A DNA stretch of 43,907 bases from Oscillospiraceae bacterium. Lineage in GTDB: Bacteria; Bacillota; Clostridia; Oscillospirales; Ruminococcaceae. Positions 32,085-43,907 of this stretch are shown in pieces (within the stretch, counting starts at the first letter, position 1; each line of letters opens with the position of its first letter). Where the stretch lies: assembly GCA_017461245.1 (NCBI GenBank), contig JAFTYW010000013.1, positions 1 through 43,907 on the forward strand, in the 5' to 3' direction. The position numbers and the translations under genes are program-made. Below the pieces are notes generated by a model. That model ran no database searches. It had not been told where the DNA came from and saw only the letters and a list, made by a program, of their open reading frames with translations.

Positions 32085-35000
32085 GTGTTTGAGCCAATTT
32101 TTGCAAGAGCGGCAAGCGCTAAGGGCGACTACATATTAAATAAAATAACCTCTTTACTCAGCAGCAGTACTAAAAAGGTTATGCTGCTTGTTCCCGAGCA
32201 GTCCTCGTTTGAAACCGAAAAGGCGCTTTACTTATCCTTAGGTGACAAGAATTTTTCTCGCCTTGAAGTCGTTTCCTTTACCCGCCTCTGCTCTCTTATA
32301 AAGGCGAGGTACGGTTCTGATAGCGGCGAGAGGCTCTCTGCCGCCGGAAAGATCATACTCACTTCCTGCGCCGCGAAAAACGCCGCCCCCTCTCTTAAAA
32401 TTTACACCTCGCAGTCTAAAAGCACCGCCTTTGCAGGCGAGGTTTCCTCGCTTATCGACGAGCTTAAAGTTGCGGGTGTTTCCCCAGAGCAGTTTGAAAA
32501 AAGTTTAGAGAGCTTTATCGACGAGCCTATTCTTTACGGCAAGCTTTCCGACATCTCTGTCATTTATCATTGGTACAGCGCCCTTTTAGAAAAGGGATAT
32601 CTCGACCCGAGCAGCGAGCTTGCATCTGCCGCCGCGCGCCTTGGGGACGGAGAGTTTTTCAAGGATTACAACATTATAATAGACGAGTTTGCCTCCTTTA
32701 ACGGCGCACAGCTTTCCATTATCGAAAAGATGTTTATGCGTTCACCGTCGGTTTCGGTTATTCTCTGCTCTGATGCACCGAACGGCAAAATACCCGCATC
32801 AGTTTTCCGTACCCCGCTTGACACCTACGCAAAGCTTTTGCGCCTTTGCAGTAAAGTCGGCTGTGAGGTTGCGGCACCTATTGTTTTAAAGGCGGGGGAG
32901 CTATTTAAAAGCGAGTCCTTGATTGCGCTTGAACAACTGCTTTCTGCAAAAATGCCCGAAAAACCCGAAAAGCCCACCGACATTACGATCAGTGCCGCTC
33001 TCTCTATAAAGCTCGAGTGCAGAAGCGTTGCCGCTCAGATAAGAAAATTGATCAGCGAGGGAAGTCTGCGCTACCGCGATATTGCGATCATAGGAAGAGA
33101 TATGGACAGCTACCTCTCTCATTTAGAGGACAGTCTGCATTTATACGATATTCCCTTTTTCAGCGACCAGAGAAGCTCGCTTACCAGCAGACCTGCCGTT
33201 GTTTTTATTATTAACCTTATCGAAACCATAATCAGCGACATTGAGCCTTCTACGCTTATAAAATATCTAAAATGCCCCATCTCCCCCATCAGCGCTGACG
33301 AAGCCGCCGAGCTTGAAAACTACATTGACCTCTGGCGCCTTAGCAAGAAAGAAATTCTCTCACCCTTTGTCAAAAACCCCAACGGTCTTGACGGAGAGAT
33401 TGACGAAAAGGGGCTTATTCGCTTATCCAAGCTTAATGAGATAAGAGAAACTGCAGTTTCGCCGCTTTTAGAGCTTAAAGGGCAAATTCTAAGAGCAGAC
33501 GGAGCCACTATTACCCGCGCCATTTACAATTTTATGAAGCAAAGCGGTGTTATCAAAAAGCTCTCTGAGCTAACTGCCGCTCTCTCTGAAACCGACAGCG
33601 CTCTTGCAGGTGAGCAGCACAGAGCATATCAGGTTTGTTTGGGCGTTCTCTCACAGCTTGCGGCGCTTTTAAAGGGTGAAAACGTTTCGCTCAAATACTA
33701 CCTTGAGCTTTTCAAGGCCGCAATAAACGCCGAGGACGTCGGCTCTATCCCCCACCATCTTGACGAGGTACAGATTGGCGACGCCGTAAGAATGAGAGCG
33801 AGCGGTGCAAAGGTCGCATTCCTTGTTGGAATGAACGAGGGCGTATTCCCCAAAAGGCATAGTGACAGCGGTCTTTTCTCTGACCGCGACCGCAAAAACG
33901 TGAGAGCGTCAGGAATTGACATTTTAACACCTTCTGCCGTTATGAATCAGAACGAGGATTACTACCTCTACTGCGCTCTTACCTCGGCGAGCGAAAAGCT
34001 TTACATAAGCTACTCCAAAAACACCCTGCAGGGCGAGCCTATTTTTGAATCTAAGATTGTAAACAAAATTAAAAAGTTCTTTGATATCAATATAAAAAAT
34101 CTATCTGATCAGCCCTTAAACGAGCTTTTTGGAACAGATGCGGCAAACTTTGAACTTTTATGCCGCCAGTACCACTCAGACAACGAGTTTTCAAGCAGCC
34201 TTAAAAAGTACTTCTCAGATTTTGCCGATGATATTTACCGCATAAAGCTTATGGGCATAGACAAGAGTCTTTCATCAAAGACGCAGACTCTCTCGGCCGA
34301 GCAGGCGTCATCGCTTTACGGCAGTCCTATGATGGTTTCGCCGTCGCAGATAGAAAAATATCATCTATGCCAGTTTGCGCATTTCTGCCGTTACGGACTT
34401 AGACTTAATCCCCTTAAAGTTGCAGAGGTTACTGCTATTGACACCGGAAACGCAATTCACGAGGTTATGGAGCGTCTGCTCAGCAGCTACAGCGTTTCTG
34501 AGCTTGCACAGCTTGGCGACAGCGAGCTTTCCTCACTTTGCGATGCCTATCTTAAAGAGTTTTTAAGCCTGCGACTTGGCAGCAGCGTTTTTGACGACAA
34601 CAGAATCGTTTACAGCATCACAAGGCTTAAATCCACCATTGTTCCCGTTATTAAGTATGTCATAAGAGAGCTTGAGGCCAGCGGATTTGTACCGCAGGAC
34701 TTTGAGCTTGAGATTCGCCGCGGGCGCGACATTGAGCCTTATATGCTCAGCTCCGACTCTGGAAAACAGATCGGTGTCTACGGAAAGGTCGACAGGGTCG
34801 ACACACTTAAGACCGACAGCTCCACCTATGTGCGAGTTATCGACTACAAGAGCGGCGGCAAGGCCTTCAGCCGCGCCGAGCTTGATTACGGATTAAATCT
34901 TCAGATGTTTTTATACCTTTTCTCTATACTTAAAAACGGCGGCAGTCGATACAGCGACACTCTTACCCCGTCGGGCGTGCTTTATATGCCCGCAAAGCGC

Positions 35001-35357
35001 AGTGAGGTTACAAAAAAAGACGGTGCTGACGACGCGAGTGTCAGCAAGGATATAGAAAAAGGCTACAGAATGAACGGCTTACTGCTTGACGACGAGCAAA
35101 ACAAAAAGGGCGCGCCGTTTTTCAGCGCGTCTTACGAGAGCAGCTTAGAGTTTTCGCTTATACAAAACAAAATTGAGGAGCTTATAAAGAAAATGGCGGA
35201 TGAGCTTATCGGCGGCAAGCTGTCGGTAAATCCGCTTTACGTAGGGCGTGAAAACAAGGCCTGCAAATACTGCGATTTCCATAAAATCTGCGGCTTTGAG
35301 GACGGAGATGCCTGCAGAATGATAACCAAAGGCGAGGAGGTAAAGAGCGATGGCTGA
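32085..35357 (+). CDS. addB: ATP-dependent helicase/nuclease subunit B (AddB)
   Basis: Subunit of the AddAB (RecBCD-like) helicase-nuclease that resects double-strand breaks for recombination and recognises Chi. The 1090-residue product begins with GTG at 32085 after GGGAGG. The N-terminal Walker A position reads ARAASAKGDY (7-16), so the P-loop glycines and Ser/Thr are lost although K13 remains. The LVPEQSSFETE segment follows as in other AddB proteins. The C-terminal RecB-like nuclease has DRVD, VRVIDYKSGG, and iron-sulfur cysteines: one in YHLCQFAHFC and the C-x2-C-x5-C group in ACKYCDFHKICGFE. It overlaps addA by 8 nt. Confidence 0.96.
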   Translation: MFEPIFARAASAKGDYILNKITSLLSSSTKKVMLLVPEQSSFETEKALYLSLGDKNFSRLEVVSFTRLCSLIKARYGSDSGERLSAAGKIILTSCAAKNAAPSLKIYTSQSKSTAFAGEVSSLIDELKVAGVSPEQFEKSLESFIDEPILYGKLSDISVIYHWYSALLEKGYLDPSSELASAAARLGDGEFFKDYNIIIDEFASFNGAQLSIIEKMFMRSPSVSVILCSDAPNGKIPASVFRTPLDTYAKLLRLCSKVGCEVAAPIVLKAGELFKSESLIALEQLLSAKMPEKPEKPTDITISAALSIKLECRSVAAQIRKLISEGSLRYRDIAIIGRDMDSYLSHLEDSLHLYDIPFFSDQRSSLTSRPAVVFIINLIETIISDIEPSTLIKYLKCPISPISADEAAELENYIDLWRLSKKEILSPFVKNPNGLDGEIDEKGLIRLSKLNEIRETAVSPLLELKGQILRADGATITRAIYNFMKQSGVIKKLSELTAALSETDSALAGEQHRAYQVCLGVLSQLAALLKGENVSLKYYLELFKAAINAEDVGSIPHHLDEVQIGDAVRMRASGAKVAFLVGMNEGVFPKRHSDSGLFSDRDRKNVRASGIDILTPSAVMNQNEDYYLYCALTSASEKLYISYSKNTLQGEPIFESKIVNKIKKFFDINIKNLSDQPLNELFGTDAANFELLCRQYHSDNEFSSSLKKYFSDFADDIYRIKLMGIDKSLSSKTQTLSAEQASSLYGSPMMVSPSQIEKYHLCQFAHFCRYGLRLNPLKVAEVTAIDTGNAIHEVMERLLSSYSVSELAQLGDSELSSLCDAYLKEFLSLRLGSSVFDDNRIVYSITRLKSTIVPVIKYVIRELEASGFVPQDFELEIRRGRDIEPYMLSSDSGKQIGVYGKVDRVDTLKTDSSTYVRVIDYKSGGKAFSRAELDYGLNLQMFLYLFSILKNGGSRYSDTLTPSGVLYMPAKRSEVTKKDGADDASVSKDIEKGYRMNGLLLDDEQNKKGAPFFSASYESSLEFSLIQNKIEELIKKMADELIGGKLSVNPLYVGRENKACKYCDFHKICGFEDGDACRMITKGEEVKSDG

Positions 35358-38300
35358 AAGAAAATGGACTAGCGCCCAAAGCGATTTTATCTCTGCACCC
35401 CGCGGCCCGATACTTGTTTCGGCGGCGGCAGGCTCTGGAAAAACCTCTGCCATAGTTGAGAGGGTCAGTCGCAGGCTTTGCGATGCTGACAATCCGCTAT
35501 CTGCCGACAAACTGCTTATGACCACCTTCTCGAATGCCGCGGCGGCAGAAATGCTCTCGCGCATCGAAACCAAGCTCTACGAGCTTTCTGAATTAGACCC
35601 CGACAGCGCCGCACTCAGCGCCCAGCTTGAGCGCCTGTCGGAAGCACAGATTGGGACTATTCACAGCTTTTGCCTTAAGATAATCAGAGAAAACTTTTCT
35701 CTTTTAGAACTTTCCTGCGATTTTCGCATTGCTGACGGCGCCGAGAACGAGATTTTGATGTATTCGGCAGTCGACAGGGTTATCAAAAAGGCTTATGCCG
35801 AAAACGACGAGGTATTCTACAAGCTGATCGAAAATGTTTGCAGCAGCCGAAACGACGCCGAGCTGACACAAATTATTTTAAAGCTCTACAGAACACTTAT
35901 CGCTATGCCCTTCCCCATTGATGTTCTGGACGGGTGGTACAACAGCTTTTTACCGAGCGAGGAGAACTACAAAAAGCTCACTGCTCCTATCATAGAAAGG
36001 GCAAAAAAGACCATAAATCAAGCCATTTTAATCTGTCAAAAGCACATTGACGCTATTGCAGACGAAAAGATGTACGCCTTTATCCTTGACGACCTTGTAG
36101 AGCTGAAGAACGCCGAAAAGGCACTCTCTAACGGCGACATTCCCGCCGCCTGCGAGGCTGCTCATGCCGTTAAGATGAGCAACCGCTCGCTTAGTCGCAA
36201 AATGGAGCCGTGCCTTAGAGAGCAGGTGAAACTCGGGCGAGAAAATGTGCGCAAAAGCGTTGCCGAAACATACGGTCTGCTTTGCGATGTTTCATACGAG
36301 CTTTACTGCTCGCAGCAGGAATATCTACTGCCATTGGTTCACAAGCTTTTCGAGCTTGTGCGCGCATTTTTAGAGGAATTTGCGGCGGCAAAAAGGAACA
36401 AAAATCTTGTTGATTTTAACGATGCCGAGCAGTTTATGCTCTCTCTTCTTTGGGAAAAGCGTGACGGCGAGTATACAAAAACCGCGCTTGCAAAGGCCCT
36501 GAGCCGCCGATATGACGAGATATACATCGACGAATATCAAGACGTTAACGCTGCGCAGGAAATGATCTTCAAGGCAATCGAGCCGGAAAGTCACAATATC
36601 TTTATGGTTGGCGACGTTAAGCAGAGCATTTACGGTTTCAGACAGGCAGATGCCGACATTTTTGAGGACAAAAAGCAGGCTTTCTTTGACTACGATGAAA
36701 AGAACTTCCCCGCCAAGATATTCTTTGACAACAATTTCAGAAGCCGCGCGGGAGTAACCGATTTTATCAACGAGGTATTCTTTAAAATAATGATTGAGGG
36801 CGTTGGCGCAGGGCTTTACACCGACGGCGACAGCTTAAAGGCTTCCGGAACCTTTCCCGAGAGCCAAAACGAGTCGGTCACTCTGCTTTTCCATAGCGCG
36901 CCCAAAGGCAGCCGCGGAAACACCTGGGTTGAGATCGAGGCAAAAATTATAGCCGAGCAGATTGACCAAATGGTAAAAAGCGGCTACAAGGTTGCAGATG
37001 GCGACGCAATGCGCCCCTGCCGTTACAGCGATTTTTGCATCTTATCGCGTGCTGACTCGGGCAGATTTTCCGCCTACAGCGACGCGCTTAAAGAGATAGG
37101 AATTGACGTAGTTGTTGACAAGAGCGGCGCCGACTTTTTGGAGAGCCGCGAGCTGCTGATGACCCTTTCTATCCTAAAAGCCATCGATAATCCCTACGAT
37201 GACGTTGCCCTTTGCAGTGCAATGATGTCCCCTGTTTTTCTGTTCACCCCGTCTGATCTGGCGGAAATTAGGTCAAACAAGTACGCCAGAAACACCGAGC
37301 TTTACACCTCGGTTAAAAATGCTGCCGAAGCGGGAAACCAAAAATGTAAGGAATTTCTAGACAAGCTTGCACAGCTTAGGCGTCTGTCGGCAGGACAAAG
37401 CGTTGACAGTCTGCTCTCTGTTTTGTATGATAGGTACGGCATTTACTGGCTTGTCGGCGCATTAAGCGGCGGCGATGAGCGAATGAACAACCTCGATATG
37501 TTCCGATATTATGCAAGGCATTTTGAGAGCAGCGGCTACAGAGGTTTGGGTCAGTTTTTGCGCTTTCTCGACAAGACTAAGAACAACAAGGACAAGCTCA
37601 AAGGCTCGCAGGGGCTTTCAGAAAATCACAACGCCGTTAAAATTATGACGGCGCACAAATCAAAGGGACTTGAGTTCCCTATCTGTATACTTGCGAATAC
37701 CGTTAAGCCTTTCTATCAGCGTGACACCATTTCAAACACTCTGCTTTGCAAAGAAATTGGCTTTGCCTGCAGGATAAACGACACAGAAAGGTCTGTAAGA
37801 TACTCTACCGTGGCGCACAAGGTTGCTCGTCTTTTGATCGAGGAGCGCCAGCTTGCTGAGGAAATGCGGCTTTTGTATGTTTCGATGACGCGAGCCAAGG
37901 AAAAGTTGATCTTGCCCATCGTTCACTCAAACATAGAAAAGCTTTTAAACGACGCGCTTATTTCGCGCGAGATCGACAACGACCCCGCCGCAGTTTTGGA
38001 CTGCAGCAGTTGGGCGCAGTGGTTTATATACGCCTGTGTTAAGTCGCCCGCTATGAGAGATGCCCTGCTTGAATTTGCCGTAAACGGCGAATACACCGAC
38101 TGTGCAAAATTTGAGATAAAGTTCGCTGATATTGCGGGCGAGCATCAAGCGAGCGAGGAAAGAGCAAAGACGGCGGCAAATGACGAGATTATTTCGCTTA
38201 TTCGCGACGCCGCAAGCTTTAAATATCCATACGCCGAGCAGACAAGCATAGCAAGCAAGCTTTCGGTCAGCGAGATTTCAAAATCAGCGGGCGAGGTTTA

Positions 38301-38859
38301 CGACTTCGAGTCTACCCCCGACTTTATGCTTGAAAACTCTATGACGGGCGCCCAGAGAGGAACTGCCCTGCATACATTTATGCAGTTTGCAGATTACGAA
38401 AAGGCGCGCGAGGATATAAAAGCGGAGCTTGAGCGCATTGAGAGCTTGGGGCACATTACCAAGAGGCAGCGCGCAGTTATCGACGAGAAAAAGCTCGGAG
38501 CCTTTTTCAGTTCCAAACTTTGCGACAGAATACTTAATTGCGACGCGGCCTTGAGAGAATACAAGTTTATGACAGGGCTTGATTCAGCACAGTTTGGCGG
38601 AACAGAGGGCGCAGGAGACACCGTTATACTGCAGGGCGTTGCCGACTGTATTATTATCGAGGGCGGCAAGGCATCTATTATCGACTACAAGACAGATTAT
38701 GTCAAAACAGAATCAGAACTTATTGAGCGATATGCCATGCAGCTTGCGCTGTATAAGGGCGCAATAGAGAAGCTGCTTGATATGCCTGTAAAGGAATGTC
38801 TTATCTATTCCTTCTGCCTTGGCAAAGAGATTTCAGTCAGCACCGAGAGCATGTTTTAA
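35350..38859 (+). CDS. addA: ATP-dependent helicase/nuclease subunit A (AddA)
   Basis: UvrD-family motor and nuclease subunit of AddAB, 1169 residues. Helicase motifs include Q motif WTSAQSDFI, Walker A AAAGSGKT (25-32), IGTIHSFCLKII, Walker B IYIDEYQDVN, motif III VGDVKQSIYGFRQAD, motif IV NNFRSR, motif V MTAHKSKGLEFPICIL and motif VI RLLYVSMTRAKEKL. The C-terminal nuclease has GTALHTFMQF, GVADCIIIEGG and IIDYKTDYVKTE. It starts inside the end of addB, giving translational coupling, and is terminated by the hairpin repeat at 38880-38952. Confidence 0.97.
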   Translation: MAERKWTSAQSDFISAPRGPILVSAAAGSGKTSAIVERVSRRLCDADNPLSADKLLMTTFSNAAAAEMLSRIETKLYELSELDPDSAALSAQLERLSEAQIGTIHSFCLKIIRENFSLLELSCDFRIADGAENEILMYSAVDRVIKKAYAENDEVFYKLIENVCSSRNDAELTQIILKLYRTLIAMPFPIDVLDGWYNSFLPSEENYKKLTAPIIERAKKTINQAILICQKHIDAIADEKMYAFILDDLVELKNAEKALSNGDIPAACEAAHAVKMSNRSLSRKMEPCLREQVKLGRENVRKSVAETYGLLCDVSYELYCSQQEYLLPLVHKLFELVRAFLEEFAAAKRNKNLVDFNDAEQFMLSLLWEKRDGEYTKTALAKALSRRYDEIYIDEYQDVNAAQEMIFKAIEPESHNIFMVGDVKQSIYGFRQADADIFEDKKQAFFDYDEKNFPAKIFFDNNFRSRAGVTDFINEVFFKIMIEGVGAGLYTDGDSLKASGTFPESQNESVTLLFHSAPKGSRGNTWVEIEAKIIAEQIDQMVKSGYKVADGDAMRPCRYSDFCILSRADSGRFSAYSDALKEIGIDVVVDKSGADFLESRELLMTLSILKAIDNPYDDVALCSAMMSPVFLFTPSDLAEIRSNKYARNTELYTSVKNAAEAGNQKCKEFLDKLAQLRRLSAGQSVDSLLSVLYDRYGIYWLVGALSGGDERMNNLDMFRYYARHFESSGYRGLGQFLRFLDKTKNNKDKLKGSQGLSENHNAVKIMTAHKSKGLEFPICILANTVKPFYQRDTISNTLLCKEIGFACRINDTERSVRYSTVAHKVARLLIEERQLAEEMRLLYVSMTRAKEKLILPIVHSNIEKLLNDALISREIDNDPAAVLDCSSWAQWFIYACVKSPAMRDALLEFAVNGEYTDCAKFEIKFADIAGEHQASEERAKTAANDEIISLIRDAASFKYPYAEQTSIASKLSVSEISKSAGEVYDFESTPDFMLENSMTGAQRGTALHTFMQFADYEKAREDIKAELERIESLGHITKRQRAVIDEKKLGAFFSSKLCDRILNCDAALREYKFMTGLDSAQFGGTEGAGDTVILQGVADCIIIEGGKASIIDYKTDYVKTESELIERYAMQLALYKGAIEKLLDMPVKECLIYSFCLGKEISVSTESMF

Positions 38860-39010: not shown

Positions 39011-39045
39011 ATAATAATTTAATTTGCAATTTAAAATTCTCAGTT

Positions 39046-39080
39046 AAAAAGGCTCCCTCGTAAGAGGGAGCCTTTTTGTT
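39046..39080. terminator. Terminator after the small acidic-peptide gene (bidirectional)
   Basis: Perfect 14-bp arms 39046-39059 and 39064-39077 (AAAAAGGCTCCCTC core) with loop GTAA. It starts with the same AAAAAGGCTCCCT as the 130-bp repeats. Confidence 0.9.
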
Positions 39081-39096
39081 TTGATTTTTTCAGAAC

Positions 39097-39243
39097 TTAG
39101 ATATTAACAAGGTTATCGTAGTTCTGAGTGTCGTCCTCGTCTAATCCGGGGAGATTGGTGTCGGGATCACCCGAAGCGGTGATTACGTCAACTGACTCAA
39201 AAAGGGTTATGTTCATTTCAGGATCTAAATACTTTTTGTTCAT
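39097..39243 (-). CDS. 48-residue acidic peptide of unknown function
   Basis: Too short for routine gene calls. On the minus strand an ATG at 39243 opens MNKKYLDPEMNITLFESVDV and runs 48 codons to TAA (39099-39097). An AGGGGTG ribosome site lies in the last codons of the preceding surface-protein gene, whose stop is only 5 nt upstream, so the two are very probably co-transcribed and translationally coupled. After the N-terminal block (KKYLDPEM-ITLFE-VDVITASGD) the tail is strongly acidic (LPGLDEDDTQNYD). There is no signal peptide, cysteine or membrane helix. Similar KY-x2-PEM-I-x2-F-x3-DVI-T-x-SG peptides occur, to my recollection, in other gut Clostridia without assigned function. Confidence 0.7.
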   Translation of the reverse strand: MNKKYLDPEMNITLFESVDVITASGDPDTNLPGLDEDDTQNYDNLVNI

Positions 39244-39248
39244 TTGGT

Positions 39249-42200
39249 TCACCCCTTTTTCGCATCGTTAAGCGGTTTGAATTCGACCGCTGCGTCACCG
39301 TATTTCATCATTGCGAGAACAACATTTGAAAGGTTGTCGTTGGGATCCTCAGGTCTGTATTTCTCTCTTGCATAAGCCGAGATGGTGTATGCGAGAATAT
39401 CACTAACCTGTGTATCGCCATTGTAAACGGTTACATATACTGTCTTGTTCATTTCAACTGAGGTAAGCTCATTGAAGTAAACAGCATATTCAGTCTTGCC
39501 CTTTACAAATTCATCGTTTGTAATTGTAGCAAGTACGTTTTCTCCCGCCTTATCAGACGAAATAACAACCTTATAATCTGCAACATCTTCCTCTGTTGCG
39601 AAGTTGAACTTCAAGCGAACATTGTTATGGAAGTTGAGGTTTGCAGAAACCCAAGTTGCCTTATCGTCTGCGCAGGACTTGGTGTAGATACCCTTAAGTC
39701 CCTTCATCTCAGGAATCTCTGCAGAAGCAAGTGCCTTCTGATCTCTTGTAAGATCGTCTTTTACAAGCTTATCTGTGTTAGTTCCTGTAAGGGTCTGAAC
39801 ATAAGAACCGTAGTAGAGAAGATCAACGATAACCTTCTTGAATGCGTCTGCATACTCGGTGTCTTCCTCGTAATCAGTTGTACCCACTTCATATTTTTCG
39901 AGTATATTGTAGCAGTACTCTTTTACGCTATACTCAATTGTGTTGCTGCACTCATTACCATTAGCATCGTTTGCTTTGAGTGTAGCGGTAATGGTGTTAG
40001 ACATCATTTCAGCAGGAACATCATCAAAGGTAAACACAAGGTTATTCTCTTCGTCTAACTCAAGGTCTCCGTTTTCATCAAGAGGAGCGTCAATTACAAC
40101 TGTTCCCTCTACACCCTCGATAGTAAACTCTGCTTTAACATCAGTGTATCCGCCCTCAGTAAGTGCGGTACCATCTGCTTTGAAGTTAACAGCAGTGTTG
40201 GCGTCAAGGGTGAGCGATGCGTTCTGGAATGTTACGTCTGCATACTCGCTTACGATTGTAGCAAGCTCGTTGCCCTCTGCATCGAAGTTCTTTCCGCAAA
40301 CTGAGCAGTGCTTATGTTCAACGGTTCCGTTTACATCAGCGGTTGCTTCAACAGCGGCAACATCTTCGAGGTTGTGGAGACCGTTAGCGCAGTAACGAGT
40401 CTTTACAAAGAGATCGTCATCTTCGAGAACGAGCATATCTCCGATATAGAGAATCTTGTCGTCCCAACCCTCTAAAGCATACTGGTCTCCGCCGGTTCCG
40501 ACGTCGTGACCGGTTTCGTCACCTACTTCACTATGAACATAGGCAGTAATGCTAAGACTGCCAGCATCGCTACCATTGGTAATCTTATCCTTGCCATAAA
40601 TGTCAAGGGGAATGACTACCCATCCGTCAAAAGCGCCCTCAAAGATGTAGCTCTTGCAGTTCCATCTCTTCCAGGTGTTAGGAGTGCTGATAGCGCCTGT
40701 TGCGTTGTCGATCATATAAGCGGTTCCCAATGTAGAGGACATCTGTCTTCCATTGATATAGAGATAGAAGCCGCTTGTTTTATTGTTCTCGTCCTCAATC
40801 TTAATTCTGATTGCCATATACTTAAGATTGGTCTTGTCAATAGAGCTGTGAAGTCCTGAGGTGCTAACAGAACCATATGTAATAGTATCAGCTAAAACAG
40901 TCTGGTTTACACAACCTGAAACCTCTTCATTTCTGTCTAACTCAATAAAGGTTTCTTTGTTGCCTCTTGCATCGGTAAACTCTCTTAAGAATAAGCGGGC
41001 GCCGTTTGCAGAGGCATCTCTGGTAGCTGTATGCGTGCCTTCGGCATTCTTACAGAATGTTGCAGAACCTGAAGGCCAACCAATTTCCTGTTTACCGGTA
41101 AGTCCTACTGCATATCCAAGATAGGGATGAGCGGTACTGTCATCATAGACATTCATAAAGTAGCTTGCGCCGTCCTCAAGGCCGGAGCTGTAGTAAGAGG
41201 TCTTGACTTCTTTGGATACAACATCATCAGACCAAGGATACTTAGCCTTAATGGTGTAGATGTAATCCTTCTCTAAGGTGATAGCGTTGATGTAATCAAT
41301 ACCATACCAGTTTGTATTGTCGATCGAGTAAACTGTTCTATTAGCGGTATCAGCCTCATTTGTAAGAACAAATTTGGTGCTGTCTTCGTTAACAGTTACA
41401 TCAAACTCGGGAGGAAGGAGAGTTGACACAAAGTCATTAACATCTTTGAGGATCTTCATATCGCCTTGATAGAAGGTCTTGCCGTTGGTGTTAGAAAGGT
41501 ATCTAAAGCCAACATTTGTAACATTTTCCATAGCGATAGAGCTATAGAACTGCGACTCGGGAACTATGATCCAACCATCAAAGTTTGCAGGAAGTGAATA
41601 GGTTGTTCCTGACTCTGCTATGGTTGTGCAAGAAGAATCGGTAAAGTTGATTAAAACAACATTCTGCCAATCACATTTTGCGCCATTAGCATGTGATGTA
41701 CCAATATGGAGATAGGTAGGAGTTTCTGTGTCTCCAACGATCTTCTGGCGGATCGCAATATAGTTGTAATCAGCAGCGTCAGAGTAAAGTGCGCTTATAG
41801 GCTGAATTCCGTAAAGCTCGCCTTCCTTGGTGCCGCCTGCAGCGGTATTATCTGCTGTAGCATCATAGCAAACGTTAAGCTCATAGGTTACAGGAAGATA
41901 TGTCGGCTGACACTCTTGTTCTGCAGTAACCTCGGTCTTAAACATATACTCGCCGTTAACATCTACGCTGGATTGACCATGGAACTTAGCGGTAGTTGTG
42001 TCGGTGGTATTCCATCTGGCAAGGCCCCAATAATAGCCTGTTCCTTCAGGTTTATCCCAACCGGCGTTGTTATAGTAAATATAGTTATTGCTGGGAACGG
42101 TAAAGATATTCTTGCTGTCCTCAAGAGTCCAAACGGTCTTGCTGACAATGTTCTTAGCCTGTGCGTTGGGATATTTTGCATATACAGTGTAATTTGTGAA

Positions 42201-43907
42201 GAACTCACGAGTTACCTTGTTGAATGCATCAATACCAAGCCAGTTTTTGCCGTCTACAGAGTAGAGAACTGATTTAACAGCATCGGTTTCGTTAGAAACG
42301 ATGACTTTATTGTAGTCATCAGTTACATCAAACTCGGGATAGAAGTGAACACGCTTAAAGGATTCAATTTCCTTAACGATCTGGATATCACCAACATAAA
42401 GATGGAGATTATCCCAGTTGCTTGTTGCAGATATATCATACAACATAAGTCCAAAGACAGTTAACTCTGAAAGGGTTGCCTTAAGAGTTGCCTTGGGAAC
42501 AAAGAGCCAGCCATCAAATCCGTTTTCAAGGGTTACATAGCTGTCGCTGCTTGTGTAGGTTGTTGTTTCGCCTGTAGCGTAGTTAACAAGTACAGTACCT
42601 GCAAGGGATACAGCGTTGCTTCCGTCGCTGTTGATCTTAAGCTGAGAAATAACGCCATCGTTGTTGCTGACCTTCTTAAGTCTGACTCCAACATAGTTGT
42701 AATCATCAACATCGTCATACAACTCGCTGATTGCTATCGAATCCCCGTATTTTGCAGTTGTGCTGTAAGTACCGGGCAAGAAGCTTACCTTCTGAACATC
42801 GGCAGTCTGGTCAACAGAATAGTATACGCTCGGGGAAACCTCAACATCAAAGAAGTTTTCGCCGTTAATGGTTACAGAATGCATCTGGTAGAACGATTTA
42901 CCTGCTTCAACCAGAGCTGCGTCATAATATAAGCTACCATTTTTCAGAACCTTTTCACTTGTGGTCCATCTTGTAAGACCGAAGTTTGTGCCCTGATTGT
43001 AGTTGATCGATCCGCCCTCTGCAGGAACAGTAAGAATGTTCTTAGCTGTGTCGCTGAGAGTCCAGACCTTTTTGCTGGTGATAAAGGACTTATCAGCAGC
43101 GTTTGCAAAAATTGCAGTAACAGTATGCTCAACAAAGCTCTTTCTGTTTGTTGCTTTGTTAAACTCGGTCTTAGTAAGCCAGGTCTTCTGGTCTACCGAG
43201 TAGAGAGCTACGCCGTCCTCATATTCATCGGTAACGGTGATGCTGTTATTATCAGCTTCAACCTCAAAGTCGGGCTTGGTGTGAGCCGCCTTGAACTTTT
43301 CGTCGCCTTCGAGAAGGAGGATATCGCCGAGATAGAGGATCTTGTCGTCCCAACCATCTAAGGAATACGTATTACTGTCGTGGCAAGGCGATTCGGCACC
43401 GGCTCCGTTATGCATATAGGGCACAATGGAAAGTGCACCAGTACTGCTGCCGTTGGTAATGTTGTCCTTACCATAAACATCAATGGGGAAAACTACCCAT
43501 CCGTCAAAGGCACCTGTAAAGATATAGTCTTTGGATTTCCAGCTGTCAGGAGTGCTGATAGCACCTGTTGCCTTATCAATAGTATAAGCGGTACCAAAGG
43601 TTGATGTTGCTTGTCTTCCGTTTAAATAGAGATAGAAGCCGCTTTTCTTGTTGTTCTCGTCCTCAATCTTAAGTCTGATTGCAATATGAGTAAGATTGGT
43701 TCTATCAATAGAGCTGTGAATTCCCGAGGTGCTGGCAGCGCCATATGTAATAGCATCGGGTAAAATAGTCTGGTTTACACAGGTAGCAATAGGCTGGCCT
43801 GCGATAGAATCTTTTACTCCATCACCATCAGCATCTTCGCTACCTACGGCTCCTTCAGGGTATACTTCAGCTTTATCAAACTCAATAAAGGTTTCGCCGT
43901 CAAACTC
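39249..43907 (-). CDS. Giant repetitive surface/secreted protein with FDGW repeats (5' end beyond window)
   Basis: At least 1552 residues; the frame is open to the window edge, so the N-terminus and signal peptide are not seen. At least four beta-rich repeats of about 312-330 residues are marked by FDGW at window residues 134, 464, 776 and 1093. Each is followed by a Y-x-GD-[IM] segment (YLGDILLLEGD, YVGDIQIVKEI, YQGDMKILKDV, YIGDMLVLEDD). Most are separated by a module with YSVD-x2-TWL/YSIDNTNW. A DADGDGVKD calcium-loop-like motif is at residues 25-33. After the repeats comes a small zinc-knuckle-like HCSVCGKNF module (~1200), two Ig-like domains, and a C-terminal domain ending KYGDAAVEFKPLNDAKKG. 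No LPXTG, SLH or dockerin is visible. Cell-surface or glycan-binding roles are inferred from architecture. Confidence 0.85.
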   Translation of the reverse strand, partial: EFDGETFIEFDKAEVYPEGAVGSEDADGDGVKDSIAGQPIATCVNQTILPDAITYGAASTSGIHSSIDRTNLTHIAIRLKIEDENNKKSGFYLYLNGRQATSTFGTAYTIDKATGAISTPDSWKSKDYIFTGAFDGWVVFPIDVYGKDNITNGSSTGALSIVPYMHNGAGAESPCHDSNTYSLDGWDDKILYLGDILLLEGDEKFKAAHTKPDFEVEADNNSITVTDEYEDGVALYSVDQKTWLTKTEFNKATNRKSFVEHTVTAIFANAADKSFITSKKVWTLSDTAKNILTVPAEGGSINYNQGTNFGLTRWTTSEKVLKNGSLYYDAALVEAGKSFYQMHSVTINGENFFDVEVSPSVYYSVDQTADVQKVSFLPGTYSTTAKYGDSIAISELYDDVDDYNYVGVRLKKVSNNDGVISQLKINSDGSNAVSLAGTVLVNYATGETTTYTSSDSYVTLENGFDGWLFVPKATLKATLSELTVFGLMLYDISATSNWDNLHLYVGDIQIVKEIESFKRVHFYPEFDVTDDYNKVIVSNETDAVKSVLYSVDGKNWLGIDAFNKVTREFFTNYTVYAKYPNAQAKNIVSKTVWTLEDSKNIFTVPSNNYIYYNNAGWDKPEGTGYYWGLARWNTTDTTTAKFHGQSSVDVNGEYMFKTEVTAEQECQPTYLPVTYELNVCYDATADNTAAGGTKEGELYGIQPISALYSDAADYNYIAIRQKIVGDTETPTYLHIGTSHANGAKCDWQNVVLINFTDSSCTTIAESGTTYSLPANFDGWIIVPESQFYSSIAMENVTNVGFRYLSNTNGKTFYQGDMKILKDVNDFVSTLLPPEFDVTVNEDSTKFVLTNEADTANRTVYSIDNTNWYGIDYINAITLEKDYIYTIKAKYPWSDDVVSKEVKTSYYSSGLEDGASYFMNVYDDSTAHPYLGYAVGLTGKQEIGWPSGSATFCKNAEGTHTATRDASANGARLFLREFTDARGNKETFIELDRNEEVSGCVNQTVLADTITYGSVSTSGLHSSIDKTNLKYMAIRIKIEDENNKTSGFYLYINGRQMSSTLGTAYMIDNATGAISTPNTWKRWNCKSYIFEGAFDGWVVIPLDIYGKDKITNGSDAGSLSITAYVHSEVGDETGHDVGTGGDQYALEGWDDKILYIGDMLVLEDDDLFVKTRYCANGLHNLEDVAAVEATADVNGTVEHKHCSVCGKNFDAEGNELATIVSEYADVTFQNASLTLDANTAVNFKADGTALTEGGYTDVKAEFTIEGVEGTVVIDAPLDENGDLELDEENNLVFTFDDVPAEMMSNTITATLKANDANGNECSNTIEYSVKEYCYNILEKYEVGTTDYEEDTEYADAFKKVIVDLLYYGSYVQTLTGTNTDKLVKDDLTRDQKALASAEIPEMKGLKGIYTKSCADDKATWVSANLNFHNNVRLKFNFATEEDVADYKVVISSDKAGENVLATITNDEFVKGKTEYAVYFNELTSVEMNKTVYVTVYNGDTQVSDILAYTISAYAREKYRPEDPNDNLSNVVLAMMKYGDAAVEFKPLNDAKKG

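What the first reader, a model, noticed from the sequence alone, without database searches (positions are those of the whole stretch)
39097..39243. Small acidic peptide gene coupled to a giant surface protein
The sequence shows a 48-codon gene with its own ribosome site inside the end of the surface-protein gene, 5 nt after that gene's stop, and followed by a strong terminator. The peptide has a two-part build: an N-terminal block (KKYLDPEMNITLFESVDVITASGD) and an acidic tail (LDEDD). I recall comparable unnamed peptides in gut Clostridia. Possible roles are a precursor peptide, an intracellular chaperone or partner for the secreted protein, or a toxin-like or signalling peptide. No modification enzyme gene is visible here.
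Basis: partly seen in the sequence, partly recalled or inferred. Interest (0 to 1): 0.7.

Follow-up and report, generated by a model that had tools for sequence, protein, structure and literature searches.

The report
RiPP-like precursor paired with surface protein
The small gene after this giant surface-protein gene is real and belongs to an unnamed family of gut-bacterial leader peptides that look like precursors of a recently described class of phosphorylated peptides, here encoded away from their likely modifying enzymes and paired with large secreted proteins.

Summary
In detail: a 48-codon minus-strand gene (39243-39097) starts 5 nt after the giant gene's stop, has its own ribosome site and ends at a strong terminator. 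It is conserved. Relatives share a ~24-residue N-block (consensus YxxPEMxIxxFxxEDVITTS) and a hypervariable acidic tail, mainly in gut and rumen Oscillospiraceae/Ruminococcus. Peptide-positive genomes nearly always hold an HprK-like kinase (28 of 31 against 18 of 266), within 10 kb in 15 of 28, often in a cassette with a PqqD-type RRE, SipW-like peptidase, NTP transferase and ABC exporter. That is the gene set of LPP RiPPs (linear polyphosphorylated peptides, Popov et al. 2026). In a same-genus genome the cassette follows the peptide; in the window's genome kinase, RRE and peptidase sit at the matching place on another contig, so the window peptide would be served in trans. New here: a different leader (P-x6-F, P-x9-F in 0 of 116), coupling to large proteins with an unnamed C-terminal domain (39 of 55 upstream genes against 5 of 312 others), one kinase with up to 11 peptides per genome, and lipoproteins ending in the same tail. 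Best reading: an LPP-like RiPP precursor whose product works with its surface protein. Phosphorylation, cleavage and joint action are inferred.

The parts
39097..39243 (-). 48-codon precursor-like peptide gene
   Evidence: relatives in 31 of 297 same-family genomes (own included)
39193..39243 (-). predicted leader, residues 1-17, ending F15-E16-S17 (counterpart of LPP F-3 E-2 T-1)
   Evidence: family alignment; cleavage inferred from PMC13381572
39220..39231 (-). YLDP = YxxP motif, predicted RRE-binding site
   Evidence: YxxP in 93 of 116 distinct peptides; role from PMC13381572 section 8
39172..39174 (-). codon of Ser24, invariant in the 24-row alignment A1, candidate phosphorylation site
   Evidence: Tyr-to-Ser distance 19 in 107 of 116 peptides; site inferred
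39100..39192 (-). predicted core: VDVITAS plus acidic tail, residues 18-48
   Evidence: inferred
39252..39258 (-). ribosome-binding site (AAAGGGG) in the last codons of the giant gene
39249..43907 (-). giant modular protein gene, 3' part, 1552 codons, 5' end beyond the contig
   Evidence: no Pfam domain over cut-off
39273..39671 (-). C-terminal domain (CT) of the giant protein, last copy; unnamed
39894..40205 (-). second, upstream CT copy
   Evidence: E 1.1e-7
39046..39077 (-). intrinsic terminator, 14-bp stem

Best explanation
The gene encodes a precursor peptide of an LPP-like RiPP pathway. SHOWN by sequence: a conserved leader-like block with a YxxP motif and a variable acidic tail; co-occurrence and frequent adjacency with an HprK-like kinase, itself often in a cassette with a PqqD-type RRE, a SipW-like (S26) peptidase, an NTP transferase and, outside this genus, an MsbA-like exporter; in the window's genome kinase, RRE and peptidase lie on contig C19 and an NTP transferase on C30, so the peptide would be served in trans; it follows a large modular protein with a characteristic C-terminal domain. 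INFERRED: the RRE binds YLDP; the kinase phosphorylates the invariant Ser24 (or Thr22); the peptidase cuts after FES17; the released acidic core is exported and acts at the cell surface together with the co-expressed giant protein.
For: Family: 31 of 297 same-family genomes at E<=0.01; 142 relatives in named genomes, best 79 loci fetched. HprK-like: 28 of 31 peptide-positive genomes against 18 of 266 others; by genus 16 of 17 against 11 of 109; leaving out the nine genomes that supplied the kinase profile, 19 of 22. NTP transferase by the independent Pfam model PF14907: 27 of 31 against 26 of 266. Kinase within 10 kb of a peptide in 15 of 28. 20 of 79 named loci hold two or more cassette genes, 6 all five. 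Same-genus locus L058: surface protein - peptide - HprK - PqqD - S26 - NTase; own genome L059 has HprK - PqqD - S26 at the matching place without peptide. RRE residues aligned to LppB N33 and D70: N 24 of 24, D 23 of 24 (three of the named loci repeat seed contigs). Peptidase Ser and His 21 of 21, Asp 15 of 21; kinase H, K and last D 30 of 30, first D 27 of 30. [IV]xF[DE][TASC], like the IxFET end of the LPP leader, in 81 of 116.
Against: No biochemistry. The published LPP motif is not met: Px9Fx[T/A] 0 of 116, VLxH 0 of 116; the window's own peptide (ITLFES) also lacks the [IV]xF form. The window and same-genus genomes lack the dedicated exporter: best hits 210 and 150 bits against about 1000 in three cassette genomes. 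The kinase's first Asp is Gly in both. PDB profile scores rank lasso RREs above LppB. PqqD alone is not specific: 12 of 12 genomes tested had one, including peptide-negative G002. 29 of 113 tails have no Ser or Thr. Peptide-positive G042 (match inside an 1865-aa frame, likely spurious), G178 and G281 lack HprK at the threshold; G042, G278, G281, G287 lack PF14907. 18 of 266 peptide-negative genomes have the kinase.
Confidence: 0.66

Rival explanations
1. The peptide is not a RiPP precursor but an intracellular partner or assembly factor of the giant protein; its link to the cassette is indirect, through the surface protein that the cassette serves.
For: The CT domain is in 39 of 55 upstream genes against 5 of 312 others; 31 of 64 CT genes have a peptide within 200 nt downstream; G178 and G281 hold peptide plus CT protein without HprK at the threshold.
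Against: 28 of 31 peptide genomes hold the kinase; the N-block has a YxxP element like RRE substrates; hypervariable tails fit a core better than a chaperone; 16 of 55 upstream genes lack the CT domain.
Confidence: 0.16
2. It is a lasso-peptide precursor with a distant cyclase.
For: YxxPx[hydrophobic] leader; RRE profile scores best against lasso B1 proteins; HprK and NTase occur in lasso clusters.
Against: Lasso leader peptidase PF13471 is over cut-off in 0 of 28 peptide genomes; 4 weak hits, none on an HprK contig. No ring-acceptor pattern in the window tail; the residue after the DVITTS block is Gly in 50 of 113. The cyclase family itself was not searched.
Confidence: 0.04
3. A secreted signalling peptide matured by the same cassette, sensed by neighbours or by the surface protein.
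For: Short, variable tails, several per genome (11 in G287); lipoproteins with the same tail that could display the ligand.
Against: No receptor or regulator gene stood out; not searched systematically.
Confidence: 0.1
4. Chance ORF or decayed gene.
For: Short; no curated Pfam or NCBIfam family matches it.
Against: Synonymous excess, 116 distinct related peptides, ribosome-site-like words before 76 of 85 relatives against 103 of 1080 random ATGs.
Confidence: 0.01

Closest known systems
LPP RiPPs, linear polyphosphorylated peptides (Popov et al., Nat Commun 2026, PMC13381572)
   Same: Core gene set SpI/SipW-like peptidase, discrete RRE, HprK-like kinase, NTP transferase, MsbA-like exporter (all five in 6 of 79 named loci); conserved N-terminus with YxxP and an F-E-small end; variable C-terminus; no B2 peptidase over cut-off.
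   Different: P-x6-F not P-x9-F, no VLxHQ, a DVITTS block after FET; mainly Oscillospirales, where the paper works on Bacilli; paired with CT-domain proteins rather than capsule loci; precursors often away from the cassette; lipoproteins with the same tail; dedicated exporter not found in the window's genus.
Paeninodin-like and Bsf phosphorylated lasso peptides (PadeK/ThcoK, PsmK/PsmN, BsfK)
   Same: HprK-like kinase with His-Lys-Asp-Asp, NTP transferase, discrete RRE, [Y/W]xxP leader (passages of PMC9266682, PMC10368454, PMC13381572).
   Different: No B2 peptidase over cut-off, no ring pattern, no conserved C-terminal Ser (4 of 113 tails end in S or T), Asn at the RRE position that is Gly in paeninodin RREs.
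PQQ pathway (PqqA-PqqD)
   Same: PqqD fold and a YxxP-like leader motif (stated in PMC13381572).
   Different: Peptide is unlike PqqA (recalled); PqqC and PqqE were not searched.

Membership tests
LPP RiPP | Conserved core genes: SpI, RRE, HprK-like, NTP transferase, MsbA-like exporter | tested here: inconclusive
   All five together in 6 of 79 named loci, two or more in 20 of 79 (contig ends cut many). Window genome: HprK, RRE, SpI together, NTase on another contig, dedicated exporter not found; genome 88% complete.
LPP RiPP | Precursor motif YxxPxVLxHQxIxFETxxS / Px9Fx[T/A] | tested here: not met
   YxxP 93 of 116, [IV]xF[DE][TASC] 81 of 116 (not the window's own), but Px9Fx[T/A] 0 and VLxH 0 of 116.
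LPP RiPP | RRE Asn33 and Asp70 that fix the leader Pro and Tyr | tested here: met
   Aligned to LppB, PDB 9x8z; N 24 of 24, D 23 of 24, own genome included. The paper says these residues also occur in many lasso and PQQ RREs, so this does not single out LPPs.
LPP RiPP | SipW-like peptidase with Ser-His-Asp | tested here: met
   Ser and His 21 of 21, Asp at the place expected for LppS D93 in 15 of 21, own genome included; LppS itself was not aligned, places taken from its residue spacing.
LPP RiPP | RRE falls in the LPP clade | not tested
   Reference set of the paper was not available; profile scores favour lasso RREs.
LPP RiPP | Polyphosphorylation of a core Ser and RRE-dependent leader removal | not testable with these tools
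   Needs mass spectrometry.
Lasso peptide | B2 leader peptidase (PF13471) | tested here: not met
   0 of 28 over cut-off.
Lasso peptide | Asn-synthetase-like cyclase in the cluster | not tested
   PF00733 was not searched; cassette neighbours were annotated only by my own profiles and two scans of ten proteins.
Lasso peptide | Core residue 1 Gly/Ala/Ser/Cys and acidic residue 7-9 (recalled) | tested here: not met
   Window tail after DVITAS is GDPDTNLPG: no acid at 7-9; family tails start with Gly in 50 of 113.

The most novel reading that the evidence does not exclude
A peptide-tagging system for giant surface proteins: one LPP-like cassette matures several small precursors encoded in trans, each co-translated with its own CT-domain protein, and the phosphorylated or sugar-bearing core binds or is joined to that protein's C-terminal domain; lipoproteins that end in the same tail give a membrane-anchored version, so the shared tail places or holds the surface protein on the cell.
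Probability: 0.17. Interest if true: 0.88.

Novelty: new variant of a known kind. Interest (0 to 1): 0.62.

Why it matters
The role of LPPs is unknown (stated in PMC13381572). A gut and rumen branch whose precursors sit in tandem with identifiable large proteins gives a concrete partner to test. It also suggests that RiPP precursors can be scattered through a genome, each beside its own surface protein, where cluster-based mining would miss them: by the methods of that paper (ORFs within 5 kb of the cluster, Px9Fx[T/A]) the window's precursor would be missed on both counts.

Tried and rejected
Curated families: Pfam and NCBIfam do not know the window peptide or, over 24 relatives, give only chance-level hits (best thiopeptide precursor, 2 of 24, E 0.0099). 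The CT domain has weak scattered hits, none over a cut-off for the window member and each in 1 of 12 members. PDB sequences: nothing for the peptide, nothing convincing for the kinase (best E 0.065) or the CT domain (E 0.19).

Lasso reading rejected on the absent B2 peptidase and lack of a ring pattern. C-terminal Ser as phosphosite rejected: 4 of 113 tails end in S or T.

CT as a strict rule rejected: 16 of 55 upstream genes lack it and 33 of 64 CT genes in the 297 genomes have no peptide within 200 nt. Four of those 33 were inspected: no peptide-like ORF; in the own-genome C51 case the domain lies inside the protein.

Bias told: the CT profile was built from 12 proteins that precede peptides, nine of them among (or on the same contigs as) the 55; without them 30 of 46 against 5 of 312. 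Five of the 64 genome hits are seeds as well, all with a peptide. The kinase profile came from nine peptide-positive genomes; figures without them are given. Cassette profiles also came from peptide loci.

Rows dropped: first counts merged identical peptides and left 81 peptides with an upstream gene in 72 of 79 loci (60 within 150 nt, 49 of them 300 aa or more; CT 33 of 48 against 11 of 319). The recount without merging: 96 peptides in 79 of 79 loci; 4 have no upstream gene in view; 71 of 92 within 150 nt, 58 of them 300 aa or more. I quote the recount. Residue and tail counts use distinct peptides from all loci.

Lipoprotein test: 17 loci chosen by hand after seeing the pattern, 12 after removing near-identical species, so the result is post hoc. 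Clear matches (score 40 or more) 6 of 17: L081, L082, L083, L085, L102, L137; seven score below the permutation mean.

Literature: searches. I saw no paper on this family in Oscillospirales in the rows listed; the motif-string search matched 194 papers, 20 listed, all by chance words. Absence is limited to this library and these rows.

Full report
What is there. The 48-codon gene lies on the minus strand at 39243-39097, 5 nt after the stop of a 1552+ codon gene that runs off the contig (the window is contig C47 of a 1.77-Mb, 88% complete genome). Its ribosome site lies in the end of the giant gene and a strong terminator follows. It reads MNKKYLDPEMNITLFESVDVITASGDPDTNLPGLDEDDTQNYDNLVNI.

It is a real, conserved gene. 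The same genome holds a related peptide at C19:19851, 12 nt after another large protein. A same-genus genome, G001, has a copy 75% identical in the alignment; the other same-genus genome, G002, 84% complete, has none. In the first 25 codons 11 of 13 codon differences are synonymous; pS 0.73 against pN 0.13 (one pair, a simple count). With a profile, 31 of 297 same-family genomes match at E<=0.01 (G042 probably spurious) and 3 of 398 across the phylum at E<=1e-4, own genome included, so the family is concentrated in this taxon. A scan of named genomes gave 142 relatives; the best 79 loci (L074-L152) include Ruminococcus flavefaciens, Faecalibacterium prausnitzii, Oscillospiraceae and some Lachnospiraceae.

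Anatomy of the family. Among 116 distinct peptides, YxxP is present in 93, D[VI]I[TR]xS in 104, and the step from the Tyr to the Ser is 19 residues in 107. After the DVITTS block comes a tail of 4-33 residues, median 14, net negative in 109 of 113. A conserved N-block plus hypervariable C-part is the build of a leader and a core. Ribosome-site-like words precede 76 of 85 peptide starts against 103 of 1080 random ATGs.

Modifying enzymes. Locus maps show HprK-like kinase, PqqD-like RRE, SipW-like S26 peptidase, ABC exporter and NTP_transf_5 next to one or two peptides. In ten proteins from two loci, Pfam supports the RRE (1.6e-13), NTase (5e-34, 1.8e-37) and ABC over cut-off; peptidase (TIGR02228, 3.2e-5) and kinase (ScmC 6.2e-5, HprK 0.0012) are below NCBIfam cut-offs and rest on weak hits and kept catalytic residues. 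20 of 79 named loci hold two or more cassette genes in the fetched stretch and 6 hold all five; the others show peptide and neighbours only, many cut by contig ends. The kinase is in 28 of 31 peptide-positive genomes against 18 of 266 negative (Fisher 7e-24), by genus 16 of 17 against 11 of 109 (3e-12). Genomes are related and nine supplied the profile; without those nine it is 19 of 22. PF14907, an independent model, gives 27 of 31 against 26 of 266. In 15 of 28 genomes with both peptide and kinase they lie within 10 kb; the window's genome is among the 13 that do not. PqqD by itself says little: 12 of 12 genomes tested had one, among them peptide-negative G002.

The window genome in detail. 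In G001 the order is Maf - LplA - large protein - peptide - HprK - PqqD - S26 - NTase (L058); Maf and LplA are names recalled from the sequences, not searched. In the window's genome the matching place reads Maf - LplA - HprK - PqqD - S26 with no large protein or peptide (L059), while an NTase resembling G001's is on C30 (L153). The simplest reading is that protein-peptide pairs move or are lost independently and the enzymes serve them in trans. The dedicated exporter of other cassettes (997-1054 bits in three genomes) was not found in either genome of this genus (best 210 and 150 bits).

What it matches. With family, cassette and co-occurrence in hand, a paper search on the YxxP motif returned PMC13381572, of which I read abstract and outline, sections 6, 7, 8, 11, 12 and 16, and passages. 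It defines LPP RiPPs by the same five enzymes, shows RRE binding of YxxP, polyphosphorylation of core Ser3 by the HprK-like enzyme, and RRE-dependent cleavage after F-E-T by the SipW-like enzyme. I then checked residues: our RREs keep the equivalents of LppB Asn33 and Asp70, the peptidases keep Ser and His and mostly Asp, and the kinases keep His-Lys-Asp and mostly the first Asp, a motif reported for lasso kinases in PMC9266682 (passages). [IV]xF[DE][TASC] is in 81 of 116 peptides, though not in the window's own. But the published precursor motif fails: three residues fewer between Pro and Phe and a DVITTS block after FET. So it works like an LPP precursor on present evidence; membership in the published family is not claimed, because its precursor motif was tested and not met.

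The surface-protein link. 71 of 92 peptides have a same-strand gene ending within 150 nt upstream; 58 of those are 300 aa or longer, median of the 71 is 814 aa. The proteins are modular: of 41 scanned, 8 have InlB-type repeats, 5 BspA leucine-rich repeats, 5 DUF285, 3 transglutaminase-like, 2 amylase. An unnamed C-terminal domain, present twice in the window protein, is in 39 of 55 upstream genes and 5 of 312 other genes of at least 300 aa in the same loci (30 of 46 without seed proteins). Genome-wide it is in 27 of 297 genomes, 23 of them peptide-positive, against 8 of the 270 without it. 31 of 64 such genes have a peptide within 200 nt downstream, 33 do not, and 34 of 77 peptides have the domain just upstream.

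Lipoproteins with the same tail. Some loci hold a 110-192 aa lipoprotein, often with a Thr/Ser-rich stalk, whose last residues repeat the tail of a neighbouring peptide: for example IELPLVPLR in both (L082, L083) and DDGLDWSPL[VT]PVN in both (L081). Cognate pairs score above shuffled pairs (34.5 against 21.0, 0 of 20000 shuffles), a post hoc test on hand-picked loci with clear matches in 6 of 17 and seven below the permutation mean. I saw no such lipoprotein beside the window peptide: the terminator and an ORF-poor spacer follow. In L062 the lipoprotein frame runs straight into the peptide.

Mechanism. I commit to an LPP-like precursor (0.66). Shown: gene, family, cassette link, trans arrangement, domain pairing. 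Inferred: RRE binding at YLDP, phosphorylation at Ser24 or Thr22, cut after FES17, export, and action with the giant protein. The weakest steps are the exporter, not found in this genus, and the reason for the pairing.

Noticed in passing
L081:2704-3036, L082:9145-9612, L083:9145-9600, L085:8018-8596, L102:8505-8978, L137:2476-2829: Lipoproteins end in nearly the same residues as the tail of a nearby peptide, several after a Thr/Ser-rich stalk.
   Followed up: partly
L062:6481-6996: A lipoprotein frame runs without a stop into a peptide (YTTPKIEV...DVITTS...IELPIIPIR), a natural fusion or a lost stop.
   Followed up: no
L058:8148-11895: Downstream of the same-genus cassette, beyond a regulator-like gene, lie an S26-type gene and short exported proteins with FAKY-type starts that recall SipW and TasA/CalY biofilm proteins (recalled, not searched).
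   Followed up: no
39045-39090: The terminator hairpin sequence recurs, 83-96% identical, at C15, C55, C1 and C34 of the genome.
   Followed up: no
32085-38859 (+): Two long overlapping plus-strand ORFs (1090 and 1169 aa) converge on the peptide gene; the end of the second (IDYKTDYV) recalls a RecB/AddA-type nuclease (recall only).
   Followed up: no
L169:858-5660 (C51 of the same genome): A third protein with the CT domain, 1600 aa, domain internal, signal-like N-terminus; no peptide-like ORF follows it.
   Followed up: partly
   Followed up: partly
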